64,000 nucleotides of DNA from a virus. Below the pieces are notes generated by a model. The model saw only the letters and a program-made list of their open reading frames with translations. It had not been told where the DNA came from and made no database searches. Location of the stretch: IMG/VR virus record IMGVR_UViG_3300037485_002668, positions 1-64,000 of that record; one strand, given 5' to 3'. This document shows, one piece after another, positions 21,528-25,501 of this stretch. Within the stretch, counting starts at the first letter, position 1. The number at the start of each line of letters is the position of its first letter. A program made the translations under genes and the position numbers.

Positions 21528-21767
21528 TTAAACGAATAACCAGATTAAAAGGTTCCCCAAAACCACCACCAAAATAAGACATCCACCAGACCCAAAACCA
21601 GTCCCGTTCTTAAAATTCTTTTCAGCTTTTTCAAATCCAGCACAGCGCTTGCAGGGTTTCTTATCTCCTTTATAGGATTCGCCCGTCTCATAATGTGGCA
21701 CGGATACGAAACTTGTGTCGTTGCCACAGCCAGGGCAGGTAGTTTTAAATGTCCAACGATTACTCAT
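21528..21767 (-). CDS. tail-anchored zinc-ribbon protein 1
   Basis: 79 residues. A zinc ribbon (CPGCGND, then CKRCAGF) is followed by a Gly-rich linker with GSGGC and a C-terminal membrane segment CLILVVVLGNLLIWLFV. The zinc part should face the cytoplasm. This is one of five proteins of the same design in this operon. It overlaps the end of the sigma54 activator gene by 8 nt. Function unknown. Confidence 0.65.
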   Translation of the reverse strand: MSNRWTFKTTCPGCGNDTSFVSVPHYETGESYKGDKKPCKRCAGFEKAEKNFKNGTGFGSGGCLILVVVLGNLLIWLFV

Positions 21768-22707
21768 AACTTTTACCTAAATTATTGGTTTTCTTTGCGT
21801 ACCAGCCTCTTAAATTTAGATATTGAATTTTATAACATAATGACCGTTCACTTATGCCCAAAAGTTTGGCCGCGCTTTTTTGGAGTCCTCTGGCAACGAT
21901 AAGCGCCTTTTGGATTTCATGAATTTCCAGATCCCGCAGGGGCGTAACAGACCTAGATTCACCCATCACAACGCTGGTTTCAAATACATCAAAAATGATA
22001 TCAAAATGCGTGATAGTTTCGCCGTTGGATAACAGGCTGGCGCGCTGAATGACGTATTTGAGTTCCCGAATGTTACCTGGCCAGCAGTAATTACAAAGCA
22101 ATTCATTAGCTTCTAAAGTTAATTCTTTTTTACAACGGAATTTATTTAAAAAAAAGTTTGCTAAGTTAACAATATCGTTTTGACGCTTGCGTAACGGGGG
22201 GATTGTAAATACAATTCCACAAAGTCGGTAACGTAAATCTTCACGCAGTTTGCCTGGGTTGCCGTTCGTGGCGCTAATGATACGGAAATCTGAATTTTGT
22301 TCAATGATACTGCCGACGCGCCGATACTTTTTTGTTTCCAGGACGGTCAAAATTTTAGCCTGCGAGGCTGTGCTTAAATCAACCACCTCGTCTAAAAATA
22401 AAGTACCGTCATTGGCGACAGAAAGTAAACCCCGTTTTTCGGTGGAACCGGTGAAGGCACCCTTGATGTTCCCGAAAAGTTCAGACTCGAAAAGGGTTTC
22501 CGGGATAGCGGCGCAATTAATAGACACTATTTTATTACTGGCGCGATGGCTATATTGGTGAATTGCGTTTGCCAGGACATCTTTACCGACACCGGTTTCG
22601 CCGATTATAAATACGGGAATATCGCTGACGGCGATTCGTTTTGCAAGTTCGTTAATTTTTCGTATTTCAAGATGGCAGGAATTTCCGAAATCAATTTCAG
22701 GCGTCAT
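21760..22707 (-). CDS. sigma54-dependent transcription activator (bEBP), no sensor domain
   Basis: 315 residues from MTPEIDFG, whose ATG overlaps the upstream stop (ATGA). The AAA+ core has Walker A GETGVGKD (36-43), the sigma54-contacting GAFTGS loop (83-88), Walker B TLFLDE (102-107) and CWPGNIRELK. A Fis-type helix-turn-helix follows (SAAKLLGISERSL). There is no N-terminal receiver or sensor domain, as in PspF, so activity is probably set by expression or a partner. It should open sigma54 promoters, which is uncommon for a phage gene. Two zinc-ribbon membrane proteins flank it. Confidence 0.92.
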   Translation of the reverse strand: MTPEIDFGNSCHLEIRKINELAKRIAVSDIPVFIIGETGVGKDVLANAIHQYSHRASNKIVSINCAAIPETLFESELFGNIKGAFTGSTEKRGLLSVANDGTLFLDEVVDLSTASQAKILTVLETKKYRRVGSIIEQNSDFRIISATNGNPGKLREDLRYRLCGIVFTIPPLRKRQNDIVNLANFFLNKFRCKKELTLEANELLCNYCWPGNIRELKYVIQRASLLSNGETITHFDIIFDVFETSVVMGESRSVTPLRDLEIHEIQKALIVARGLQKSAAKLLGISERSLCYKIQYLNLRGWYAKKTNNLGKSYE

Positions 22708-22955
22708 AAAATAGTTTTCAAAATACCAAAAGCAATTGGGATAAAAATAATTATGGAACAAAAACCAGCAGATCGTTTAACGGGCGTTCCCTGATCATCA
22801 ACGGGGTCATCTTCGCCTAAAAATGAATCAGATCCCTCAGTACAATCGTGACAGGGGGAATTGGTTTTTAACTCTTTATCGGCGCCGATACAAAAGCCAG
22901 ATTCGATTTCTTTGCCACACTTGGGATTGCAGCAAATAATTCTATACGTTCCCAC
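22704..22955 (-). CDS. tail-anchored zinc-ribbon protein 2
   Basis: 83 residues from a GTG preceded by GGAGGT. Cys pairs CCNPKCGKE and CHDC, an acidic linker, then SAGFC and membrane segment SIIIFIPIAFGILKTIL. Same layout as the other four members. It is directly upstream of, and coupled to, the sigma54 activator gene. Confidence 0.65.
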   Translation of the reverse strand: MGTYRIICCNPKCGKEIESGFCIGADKELKTNSPCHDCTEGSDSFLGEDDPVDDQGTPVKRSAGFCSIIIFIPIAFGILKTIL

Positions 22956-23268
22956 TGAGCACCTCCTGGTTAAACAGCGCTAAAAAGAATCCGGATTCGT
23001 GAGGGTATTCGTCTAAATATTTTTTGGCTAAATCGGGAACGGTGATCCGATGCCGAACATATTTACGGTCTTCGGGGAAATGTAACGCCCACTGAAACGC
23101 GAATTCAGGGGGAAAAGCCTCCCGTTGTTTATACGTATGGTTCCGCAATTTGCGATGGTATCTTAATTTTAGGAATAACGGTTCCCACTCGTTTTTTTCA
23201 ATGGCAGCTTGAATTAAAGGTGCAATTTTGGGATTACTTCCAAATAAATCTTGTAAATTTTGAAGCAT
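22942..23268 (-). CDS. hypothetical protein
   Basis: 108 residues, helical, Arg/His-rich in the middle (LKLRYHRKLRNHTYKQREAF) with HFPEDRKYVRHR. ATG overlaps the upstream stop (ATGA). The sequence could suit nucleic-acid binding, but no family is recognised. Confidence 0.58.
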   Translation of the reverse strand: MLQNLQDLFGSNPKIAPLIQAAIEKNEWEPLFLKLRYHRKLRNHTYKQREAFPPEFAFQWALHFPEDRKYVRHRITVPDLAKKYLDEYPHESGFFLALFNQEVLSGNV

Positions 23269-23411
23269 CAGACCTCCTCGTCACTATCGATAACAATATC
23301 GCCGCCACATTTCGGACATTTATCCGGGGCGCGTTTGCCACTGCTTTTGTAAGTACATTTAGAACAGTACCAGGTAAGTATGGTGGCACATAATTTTTTG
23401 ATAAATTCCAT
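23268..23411 (-). CDS. short zinc-ribbon protein
   Basis: 47 residues: MEFIKKLCATILTWYCSKCT, then CPKCGGDIVIDSDEEV. Rubredoxin-like C-x2-C pairs bind one zinc. Its stop overlaps the next ATG, confirming it as a real operon member despite its size. Function unknown. Confidence 0.6.
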   Translation of the reverse strand: MEFIKKLCATILTWYCSKCTYKSSGKRAPDKCPKCGGDIVIDSDEEV

Positions 23412-23419
23412 GATAAAAC

Positions 23420-24371: not shown

Positions 24372-24467
24372 TCAGAGTTCGCAAACCGGGATTTCAAAAA
24401 CGCCGAACCAGTCTAATTGGCTATGGGTGGCGGGCTGGTCCGGGTGATAGATACAATTTTGAGGCAT
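24372..24467 (-). CDS. possible 31-residue peptide
   Basis: MPQNCIYHPDQPATHSQLDW and eleven more residues, with an ATG 4 nt after CGGAGG. One Cys/His cluster (C-x2-H) near the start and a Cys near the end could hold a metal. Its operon position supports it, but the size leaves doubt. Confidence 0.4.
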   Translation of the reverse strand: MPQNCIYHPDQPATHSQLDWFGVFEIPVCEL

Positions 24468-24588
24468 GGTTCCTCCGTAAACAATTGGGGGTAAAATCAA
24501 TAATCTCATTTGACCCAGTTCATGGTTGGGTTTTGTGATTGTTGTTGTTATTTAACGGTGCGATTTTACCCCCGTTAATTTAAATAGT

Positions 24589-24834
24589 CTAAATTAAAAA
24601 TGAAACAATAATTGGAACGCTGAAAATAAAAAATAACGGAACGATACAGCCAATCCCAAAGCAGCCTTTATCGACATAGCTGCCTTCGTCTGAGCCGGTT
24701 GGTGATTGACCCGCGTTTTTGCAAGCTGTACAGGTTATGTATTTTGTTTCGATGGTATCAGATAAACTGGGGGTGCTTGTGCTCCCAAAAATCCGACCAC
24801 AATGCCTGCATTCAGTTTGCCTTGTCTTCGCCAT
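24589..24834 (-). CDS. tail-anchored zinc-ribbon protein 4
   Basis: 81 residues. Zinc ribbon CRHCGRIF and CTACKNAG, a Ser/Gly/Asp linker, then DKGCFGIGC and a long membrane segment IVPLFFIFSVPIIVSFLI. It has two Cys at the membrane border where the others have one. Confidence 0.65.
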   Translation of the reverse strand: MAKTRQTECRHCGRIFGSTSTPSLSDTIETKYITCTACKNAGQSPTGSDEGSYVDKGCFGIGCIVPLFFIFSVPIIVSFLI

Positions 24835-25039
24835 GGCGGTGGTTTCCTTTTAAAAATGTTTCCGGTACCCAGCGGATACCGTTTTTTTGATGCTTTATTT
24901 TTTTCAGACTGATTCGATACAGGAACCAGTAACGTTCGGACGGTTCAATTTTTTTGACGGTACCATCCCGATGATCGCGTTCATCTTGAACCTGATCGCC
25001 GATACTAAATTTGGGGTGCGTCACTTGCTTCAAATCCAT
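24812..25039 (-). CDS. small SH3-like hypothetical protein
   Basis: 75 residues from MDLKQVTH; the longer frame from 25093 lies within the upstream gene. FSIGDQVQDERDHRDGTVKK resembles the G-D-x-V...G-T-V turn of KOW/SH3-like beta barrels. It overlaps genes on both sides by 23-35 nt. Nucleic-acid or protein binding is possible. Confidence 0.5.
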   Translation of the reverse strand: MDLKQVTHPKFSIGDQVQDERDHRDGTVKKIEPSERYWFLYRISLKKIKHQKNGIRWVPETFLKGNHRHGEDKAN

Positions 25040-25295
25040 AACATTCTTGCAACCAAACGGGATCAAAATTAAATGGCCACATAAACCAACCATTTCTTAC
25101 GCCGTGTGGGTCGGCCTTAATATTGGTTAATTTTGTTTTTACCGGTGCGCTATCACTTTTAGCTATCATGAAAAAGCTTAAAATAGATGCGACATTTGGA
25201 TTGGCGACTATGTCTGGATGCCCGCAACTTGAATGGCAATCGCCTGGGCATGGCCGTCGCCAGCGGCATTGGTAACAATTTTCTTGATCTGTCAT
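25005..25295 (-). CDS. Cys-rich hypothetical protein
   Basis: 96 residues from MTDQENCYQC, whose ATG overlaps the upstream stop (ATGA). Seven Cys fall within the first 25 residues (CYQCRWRRPCPGDCHSSCGH), a pattern seen in small zinc or iron-sulfur clusters. The remainder is unremarkable. Function unknown. Confidence 0.55.
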   Translation of the reverse strand: MTDQENCYQCRWRRPCPGDCHSSCGHPDIVANPNVASILSFFMIAKSDSAPVKTKLTNIKADPHGVRNGWFMWPFNFDPVWLQECYGFEASDAPQI

Positions 25296-25501
25296 ATAAT
25301 TTGGCAAAGATATAATTTAATAATAAATGAAATAATTATTAATGAACATCCACTTGCACTCTTTAATTTATTAGAACAATTTTTACACAAAGCATCCGCA
25401 TATTCAGTTCGGGTTTCATCGTCCTTTAATTCGTTGTCATGATAACTTCCTTTGTGCAGTCCACAACCTGGACAAAGTACTTCAACGTTATGATTTTTCA
25501 T
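25292..25501 (-). CDS. tail-anchored zinc-ribbon protein 5
   Basis: 69 residues: CPGCGLHKG, an acidic middle, CKNC, then SASGC and membrane segment SLIIISFIIKLYLCQII. It is the first of the five in transcription order, directly after yidD. Confidence 0.66.
   Translation of the reverse strand: MKNHNVEVLCPGCGLHKGSYHDNELKDDETRTEYADALCKNCSNKLKSASGCSLIIISFIIKLYLCQII

What the first reader, a model, noticed from the sequence alone, without database searches (positions are those of the whole stretch)
21528..25501. Five small proteins of one design: zinc ribbon, Gly-Cys, C-terminal membrane anchor
Members at 21528, 22704, 23629, 24589 and 25292 share C-x2-C, C-x2-C, a short polar linker, a Gly-x-Cys or GC just before a 15-20 residue membrane segment, and an operon. 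Their sequences otherwise differ strongly, which suggests old duplication with divergence. Alternation with a bEBP, a lipoprotein and yidD hints at a membrane-linked signalling or exclusion system.
Basis: seen in the sequence. Interest (0 to 1): 0.75.

Follow-up and report, generated by a model that had tools for sequence, protein, structure and literature searches.

The report
Phage gene cluster for zinc membrane proteins
A virus of an unidentified bacterium carries, in one run of genes, five small proteins that each look like a metal-binding knob on a membrane tail, together with a helper for inserting membrane proteins and a gene switch, which suggests a kit for altering the host's inner membrane whose function is still untested.

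Summary
The window is 64 kb of a 99,244-base virus record, a tailed phage. Five minus-strand genes encode 64-83 aa proteins with two cysteine pairs, a linker, Gly-Cys or Gly-x-Cys, and a C-terminal membrane helix ending 0-4 residues from the stop. The same scan finds no other in the record, four in 1.07 Mb of other viral DNA (two with a good ribosome-binding site, both in one contig) and none on reversed DNA. Two corrections: one first pair is C-x3-C or C-x4-C, and one member has a 10-residue loop where four have 21-25. Common descent is not shown: pairwise scores do not beat shuffles that keep the design, and leave-one-out profiles recover at best one of four. The genes lie in a likely discrete unit: terminator, promoter-like site, strongly folded leader, intact yidD, five zinc/membrane genes among other small genes, a sigma-54 activator without sensor domain, terminator. 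My best reading is a late moron (host-envelope) cassette whose YidD helps insert C-tail-anchored adaptors; superinfection exclusion or control of the activator are possible roles, none tested. Just outside the window the phage carries type IV CRISPR-like csf1-csf2-csf3 genes beside a cysH-like gene.

The parts
26023..26061 (-). Likely intrinsic terminator that closes the upstream (tail-side) transcription unit
   Evidence: GC-rich stem followed by 9 T read in the sequence; coordinates; also picked up in part
25911..25939 (-). Sigma-70-like promoter TTGACT-17-TATATT
   Evidence: 10 of 12 matches; such sites are not rarer than chance in the region (29 found, 30.6 expected), so position is the only support
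25751..25894 (-). Strongly folded leader RNA, or a small inverted-repeat element
   Evidence: -59.2 kcal/mol, z -5.98, 0 of 200 shuffles as stable; no Rfam family at gathering threshold; one copy in the record
25517..25726 (-). yidD, membrane protein insertion efficiency factor
   Evidence: TIGR00278 96.7 bits, cut-off 40, profile 1-63 of 64
25292..25501 (-). P5: zinc-ribbon-like, Gly-Cys, C-terminal helix, 69 aa
25005..25295 (-). 96 aa Cys-cluster protein, start overlaps P5 stop by 4 nt
   Evidence: no family
24812..25039 (-). 75 aa protein (start chosen at 25039), overlaps P4
24589..24834 (-). P4: zinc-ribbon-like, Gly-Cys, C-terminal helix, 81 aa
   Evidence: AF2 single-sequence model confident only in the C-terminal helix
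24372..24467 (-). 31 aa ORF with a Shine-Dalgarno-like sequence, uncertain gene
23929..24288 (-). 119 aa lipoprotein-like protein (signal peptide and LIGGC read by eye)
   Evidence: no family over cut-off
23629..23823 (-). P3: short-loop (10 residue) ribbon, Gly-Cys, C-terminal helix, 64 aa
23420..23608 (-). 62 aa protein, unknown
23268..23411 (-). 47 aa rubredoxin-like ribbon protein without a C-terminal helix
   Evidence: PF21349 26.7 bits, cut-off 26.5
22942..23268 (-). 108 aa protein, unknown
22704..22955 (-). P2: ribbon-like with C-x3/4-C first pair, Gly-Phe-Cys, C-terminal helix, 83 aa, GTG start
21760..22707 (-). Sigma-54 activator (AAA+ plus Fis-type HTH) without an N-terminal sensor domain; loop reads GAFTGS
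   Evidence: PF00158 3e-51, PF02954 4.9e-8; phrog_7998 6.8e-40; start overlaps P2 stop by 4 nt
21528..21767 (-). P1: zinc-ribbon-like, Gly-Gly-Cys, C-terminal helix, 79 aa; overlaps the activator by 8 nt
   Evidence: AF2 single-sequence model confident only in the C-terminal helix
21450..21479 (-). Intrinsic terminator ending the unit

Best explanation
This is a moron (host-modifying) transcription unit at the end of a tailed phage's structural region, with its own promoter and terminators. It makes five small proteins that sit in the host inner membrane by a C-terminal helix, with the cysteine-pair knob in the cytoplasm where it can bind zinc (or iron) and hold a partner protein at the membrane. 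The phage supplies its own YidD as first gene, so that these C-tail-anchored proteins insert efficiently when made in bulk, and a sensor-less sigma-54 activator that would switch on host or phage sigma-54 promoters, plausibly a membrane-stress response to the load. The net effect is most likely a changed envelope: superinfection exclusion or host take-over. Shown: gene order, design, rarity in the controls, intact yidD and activator domains. Inferred: topology, metal, insertion by YidD, the unit's borders, and every function.
For: Five-fold recurrence of the design inside 4 kb, nowhere else in the record, rare elsewhere. Every small gene with a C-terminal helix that the gene caller found in the window has both a Cys pair and the Gly-Cys border (5 of 5), against Gly-Cys in 3 of 14 viral and 0 of 6 bacterial control genes (hypergeometric 0.001). 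Zinc sites formed by cysteine pairs need a reducing compartment (recalled), and the tails beyond the helix are 0-4 residues, as in C-tail-anchored proteins; one review says such proteins are probably targeted post-translationally by SRP and that E. coli yidC sits in a conserved cluster with rpmH, rnpA and yidD (PMC10502375, passages). YidD is intact and was over cut-off in 0 of 50 other viral records; for PF00158, 1 of 50 was over cut-off, weakly (26.3 bits), in a 763-residue open frame. Start-stop overlaps couple P2-activator-P1, P5-Cys96 and 75aa-P4.
Against: No sequence homology among the five is shown, so a shared function is inferred from design alone. No relative of P1, P3, P4 or P5 was found in named phages (P2 was not searched there), so conservation cannot be tested. 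Single-sequence AF2 gave no ribbon fold for P1 or P4 (mean pLDDT 54 and 55). No sigma-54 sites are enriched: 69 two-mismatch matches against 57 expected, sd 7, and a weighted scan found 13 against 4-14 in shuffles. The promoter call is not above chance. No PADLOC defence model fits the five (best P5, 16.7 bits).
Confidence: 0.35

Rival explanations
1. P2 and P1, coupled on either side of the sigma-54 activator, are its membrane-bound regulators: they hold the activator at the membrane and release it on a membrane or redox/zinc signal, as PspA and partners restrain PspF in the phage-shock system (recalled).
For: The activator lacks any sensor domain, like PspF in architecture; P2 stop and activator start overlap by 4 nt, activator stop and P1 start by 8 nt.
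Against: The activator is not a PspF by NCBIfam (207.1 bits, cut-off 443.55); P3, P4 and P5 have the same design but no activator next to them; no sigma-54 promoter enrichment.
Confidence: 0.18
2. The five are unrelated small proteins with a generic zinc-ribbon-plus-helix build gathered by chance in a moron region, without a shared task.
For: No homology beyond the design; P3 has a different ribbon spacing; ribbon-plus-helix proteins occur in other phages, e.g. two neighbouring ones in Lactobacillus phage LBR48 and two in L116, one with GIGCLGC before the helix.
Against: Density: 5 in 4 kb against 4 in 1.07 Mb of other viral DNA; Gly-Cys at the helix border in 5 of 5 against 3 of 20 control genes.
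Confidence: 0.27
3. They belong to the lysis programme: small membrane proteins (holin- or antiholin-like) that sense or time membrane collapse.
For: Position at the downstream end of the structural genes; short C-terminal helices; two other small genes with hydrophobic stretches upstream at 28308-28580 and 28573-28863 (read by eye).
Against: No lysis family matched; five ribbon-bearing copies have no parallel among holins that I know; no endolysin was recognised next to them.
Confidence: 0.08

Closest known systems
Ribbon-plus-helix membrane proteins of temperate phages (e.g. Lactobacillus phage LBR48 'putative membrane protein' pair)
   Same: Cysteine-pair ribbon at the N-terminus and membrane helices; two copies side by side between a regulator gene and the integrase
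   Different: There the first helix is followed by further helices or a long outer domain and no Gly-Cys border; here the protein ends with the helix
L116 gene 5398-5676 (IMGVR_UViG_3300035698_023757)
   Same: Two cysteine pairs, GIGCLGC directly before a hydrophobic C-terminal segment
   Different: Short-loop ribbon like P3, longer linker and longer hydrophobic end; no yidD or sigma-54 activator in the 13.5 kb contig
PspF / sensor-less sigma-54 activators; PADLOC RtcR_PspF2
   Same: AAA+ and Fis HTH, no sensor; best PADLOC match 8.8e-84 to the AAA-HTH part of RtcR_PspF2
   Different: Below the PspF cut-off; lacks the CARF domain of RtcR_PspF2
Chromosomal yidD
   Same: Full-length YidD over cut-off
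   Different: Not in the rpmH-rnpA-yidD-yidC setting; heads a phage unit
Cor-, Ltp- or Imm-type superinfection exclusion proteins (recalled)
   Same: Small membrane-associated moron products
   Different: No sequence match of the five; the lipoprotein matches Cor only at E 0.15 over its signal peptide

Membership tests
YidD (TIGR00278) | score over the curated cut-off across the whole profile | tested here: met
   96.7 bits, cut-off 40, profile 1-63 of 64
Sigma-54 activator (bEBP) | sigma-54 interaction AAA+ domain and DNA-binding HTH | tested here: met
   PF00158 173.9 bits, PF02954 33 bits, both over cut-off
Sigma-54 activator (bEBP) | GAFTGA loop (recalled motif) | tested here: inconclusive
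   reads GAFTGS in the translation
PspF (TIGR02974) | score over the equivalog cut-off | tested here: not met
   207.1 bits, cut-off 443.55
RtcR_PspF2 CARF-AAA-HTH (PADLOC) | CARF sensor domain | tested here: not met
   match covers profile 175-479 of 481 only
One paralogous family of five | pairwise similarity above design-preserving shuffles | tested here: not met
   20 comparisons; smallest count 11 of 300 shuffles as good, P1-P5 global
One paralogous family of five | leave-one-out profile recovers the held-out member | tested here: inconclusive
   1 of 4 ranked first outside training (P1, E 0.003), lost when the helix is removed; P5 rank 47, P2 rank 266, P4 not found, of 13,004 ORFs; P3 was in no training set and ranked 169 at best
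Zinc ribbon | two C-x2-4-C knuckles | tested here: met
   5 of 5; P2 with C-x3/4-C
Zinc ribbon | bound metal and ribbon fold | tested here: inconclusive
   single-sequence AF2 of P1 and P4 uninformative; metal not testable here
LITAF-like zinc ribbon (PF10601) | score over the Pfam cut-off | tested here: not met
   P4 16.9 bits, cut-off 23.8
TFIIS/RPB9-type ribbon | profile match | tested here: inconclusive
   profile A2 matches 1qyp at 8.6e-4 but C2H2 finger arrays score higher, 6e-5
Lipoprotein (for the five) | N-terminal signal peptide ending in a lipobox Cys | tested here: not met
   the most hydrophobic segment is C-terminal and follows the Cys; lipobox rule recalled
Superinfection exclusion protein | blocks a second infection | not testable with these tools
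   needs an infection assay

The most novel reading that the evidence does not exclude
A phage-encoded envelope-signalling module: a phage YidD loads a set of membrane-tethered metal-ribbon receptors whose state (metal, redox or membrane stress at the Gly-Cys border) gates a phage sigma-54 activator, letting the phage command the host's sigma-54 regulon from the membrane.
Probability: 0.1. Interest if true: 0.75.

Novelty: new variant of a known kind. Interest (0 to 1): 0.42.

Why it matters
If the cassette works as proposed, it would be a case in which a phage brings its own helper for membrane-protein insertion together with the membrane proteins it serves, and a sigma-54 activator beside them. 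It would give a small, testable set of membrane-tethered zinc proteins and a way to ask what the recurring Gly-Cys at the helix border is for. It also suggests that moron regions of uncultured phages hold design-level families that sequence profiles miss.

Tried and rejected
Relatives: the search for related loci in viral contigs with the activator, P4, the putative major capsid protein, YidD and the large terminase gave no confirmed relative; the tool says records very near the window's own may be left out. tblastn of P1, P3, P4, P5 and the L116 protein in named phages gave only E 0.9 or worse. Of the five, only P1 and P5 fit these narrow patterns, so absence is weak evidence.

Host: a YidD scan of genome contigs gave mostly Clostridia (best 68%), with a Syntrophaceae and a Cloacimonadota genome among the 80 kept loci; host left open. 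P1 in 15 genomes behind those loci gave nothing below E 0.05. Profile A2 in 124 genomes of the phylum of G012 found nothing (it does find its four members in the record). P3 in 199 genomes of the phylum of G001 found 10 weak matches; I screened 8 of the 10 loci for small ORFs with two Cys pairs, which gave 4 proteins, none of this design.

YidD hits in named phages: 42 of 50,697 records; the two I opened (MT835476, MT836067) have a chromosomal rpmH-rnpA-yidD-yidC-like order and look like bacterial DNA. Sigma-54 promoters: not enriched. MAFFT alignment A1 of all five misplaced the cysteines and was not used further; A2 of four was. Lipidation of the border Cys rejected, see above. Literature: searches (listings only, except passages of PMC9414953, PMC10502375 and PMC13261788) showed nothing on phage zinc-ribbon tail-anchored proteins, phage-borne yidD or phage-borne sigma-54 activators; that is a statement about those searches only.
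Full report
What the window is. It is bases 1-64000 of a virus record of 99,244 bases. Gene order read from translations fits a tailed phage: large terminase (PF04466), a portal-like gene, a putative capsid gene, a tape-measure-sized gene of 2,734 codons and a tail-fibre-like gene all run leftward on the minus strand. The finding lies just beyond their downstream end.

The observation. I call them P1 (21528), P2 (22704), P3 (23629), P4 (24589) and P5 (25292). Each has two cysteine pairs, a polar linker, a Gly-Cys or Gly-x-Cys and a hydrophobic segment that ends 0-4 residues before the stop. P2's first pair is C-x3-C or C-x4-C. P3's two pairs are 10 residues apart, those of the other four 21-25, so P3 is a different kind of ribbon. 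P2-P5 have Shine-Dalgarno-like sequences; P1 is coupled to the gene before it by an 8-nt overlap. A sixth ribbon gene (23268-23411, 47 aa) is rubredoxin-like by a bare margin (26.7 bits, cut-off 26.5) and has no C-terminal helix.

Is it more than chance? A fixed scan (ORF up to 130 aa, two C-x2-4-C pairs, C-terminal 15-residue window of mean hydropathy at least 2.0) finds these five and no other in the record. In 119 other viral loci (1,069,819 bases) it finds 4, of which 2 have a ribosome-binding site, both in L116. On the reversed sequence of all loci and the window it finds 0. In 106 bacterial loci (731,337 bases) it finds 1, without Gly-Cys or a good ribosome-binding site. Among called small genes with a C-terminal helix, the Gly-Cys border occurs in 5 of 5 here, 3 of 14 in the viral loci and 0 of 6 in the bacterial loci. 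The viral loci came from a Cys-motif pattern scan, which biases the control upward. A codon-usage test did not separate P1, P4 and P5 from chance ORFs, but it failed on yidD too.

Are they one family? Not shown. With the cysteines fixed and the soluble and membrane parts shuffled apart, no pair is convincingly better than its shuffles; the best is P1-P5, global, 11 of 300. Leave-one-out profiles over 13,004 ORFs put P1 first outside the training set (E 0.003), but not without the helix; P5 is rank 47, P2 rank 266, P4 is missed, and P3 is rank 169 at best. The alignment of four (A2) matches RNA polymerase TFIIS-type ribbons in the PDB (1qyp, 8.6e-4), but C2H2 finger arrays score higher, so this only reflects the spacing. 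No Pfam or NCBIfam cut-off is reached; PHROG matches are weak (phrog_1315 for P4, 1.1e-3; phrog_7826 for P5, 1.9e-3).

The unit. Upstream of yidD stands a likely terminator (26023-26061), then a promoter-like site (25911-25939), then a leader that folds far better than its shuffles (-59.2 kcal/mol, z -5.98, 0 of 200), with inverted arms at 25876-25894 and 25751-25769. It matches no Rfam family at gathering score, has no second copy in the record and no match in named phages. It could be a regulatory RNA or a small inverted-repeat element; I cannot tell. Then follow yidD, P5, a 96 aa Cys-cluster protein, a 75 aa protein, P4, a possible 31 aa ORF, a lipoprotein-like gene, P3, a 62 aa protein, the 47 aa ribbon, a 108 aa protein, P2, the sigma-54 activator, P1 and a terminator (21450-21479). 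The promoter-like site is not rarer than chance, so the borders are likely, not shown.

YidD and the activator. YidD is intact. It is over cut-off in 0 of 50 other viral records (50 of my 119 loci, chosen by hand). In named phages 42 of 50,697 records match; the two I opened look like bacterial DNA with the chromosomal gene order. The activator has AAA+ and HTH domains, no sensor, and GAFTGS for the usual GAFTGA (recalled); its best PADLOC match is the AAA-HTH part of RtcR_PspF2 (8.8e-84) without the CARF part. In the same 50 viral records 4 matched PF00158 at E 0.001 and only one was over cut-off, weakly (26.3 bits), in a 763-residue open frame. Sigma-54 sites are not enriched; the second-best weighted site of the record, TGGCACGGTATTTGA at 19275-19289, is intergenic, upstream of an operon with an integrase.

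How it most likely works. Cysteine pairs that bind zinc or iron point to a cytoplasmic knob, and tails of 0-4 residues point to C-tail anchors with the N-terminus inside. A review passage says C-tail-anchored proteins are probably targeted post-translationally, and another that yidD and yidC share a chromosomal cluster (PMC10502375, passages). I propose that the phage's YidD raises insertion of its own small membrane proteins and that these tether partners at the membrane to change the envelope, with the activator turning on sigma-54 genes. Superinfection exclusion is the best single guess from position and company. Everything after the gene anatomy is inference. The main rivals are control of the activator by P1 and P2, and a chance gathering of unrelated ribbon proteins.

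Verdict. The cluster is real and unusual; the family claim is unproven; function is open. The nearest parallel I found is one gene in L116 with GIGCLGC before its helix.

Noticed in passing
record positions 65049-68427, minus strand (L001:1049-4427), just outside the window: Type IV CRISPR-like genes: csf1 (9.7e-29), csf2 (2.7e-36, with a Cas11-like stretch, 9.1e-4), csf3 (8.1e-24), and a PAPS-reductase (cysH-like, PF01507 8.7e-18) gene next to them. A csf set with cysH suggests type IV-B (recalled). No array search was made.
   Followed up: partly
window 25751-25894, minus strand: Strongly folded leader (z -5.98) with 19-nt inverted arms and TA near both borders: regulatory RNA or a small inverted-repeat element.
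   Followed up: partly
window 27090-27542 and 27542-28315, minus strand: Adjacent genes with weak cohesin (PF00963, 0.015) and dockerin type I (PF00404, 5.8e-4) matches, both under cut-off, downstream of the tail-fibre-like gene.
   Followed up: no
window 79-208, minus strand: tRNA (Rfam 35.9 bits) with 63 bases where the model has 7 in the anticodon arm: an insertion of about 56 bases; ARAGORN did not list it.
   Followed up: no
window 16673-16806, plus strand: tRNA-like match (41 bits) with intact acceptor and T arms but no normal anticodon arm, about 134 bases long.
   Followed up: no
window 5315-6493, minus strand: Phage adenylosuccinate synthetase-like gene (PF00709 8.3e-40; PurZ model 2.6e-12, below its cut-off).
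   Followed up: no
window 19275-19289, minus strand: Intergenic sigma-54-like site upstream of an operon with an integrase; such sites are not enriched overall.
   Followed up: partly
window 28870-31095, minus strand: Tail-fibre-like protein with a long Ser-rich repeat stretch.
   Followed up: no
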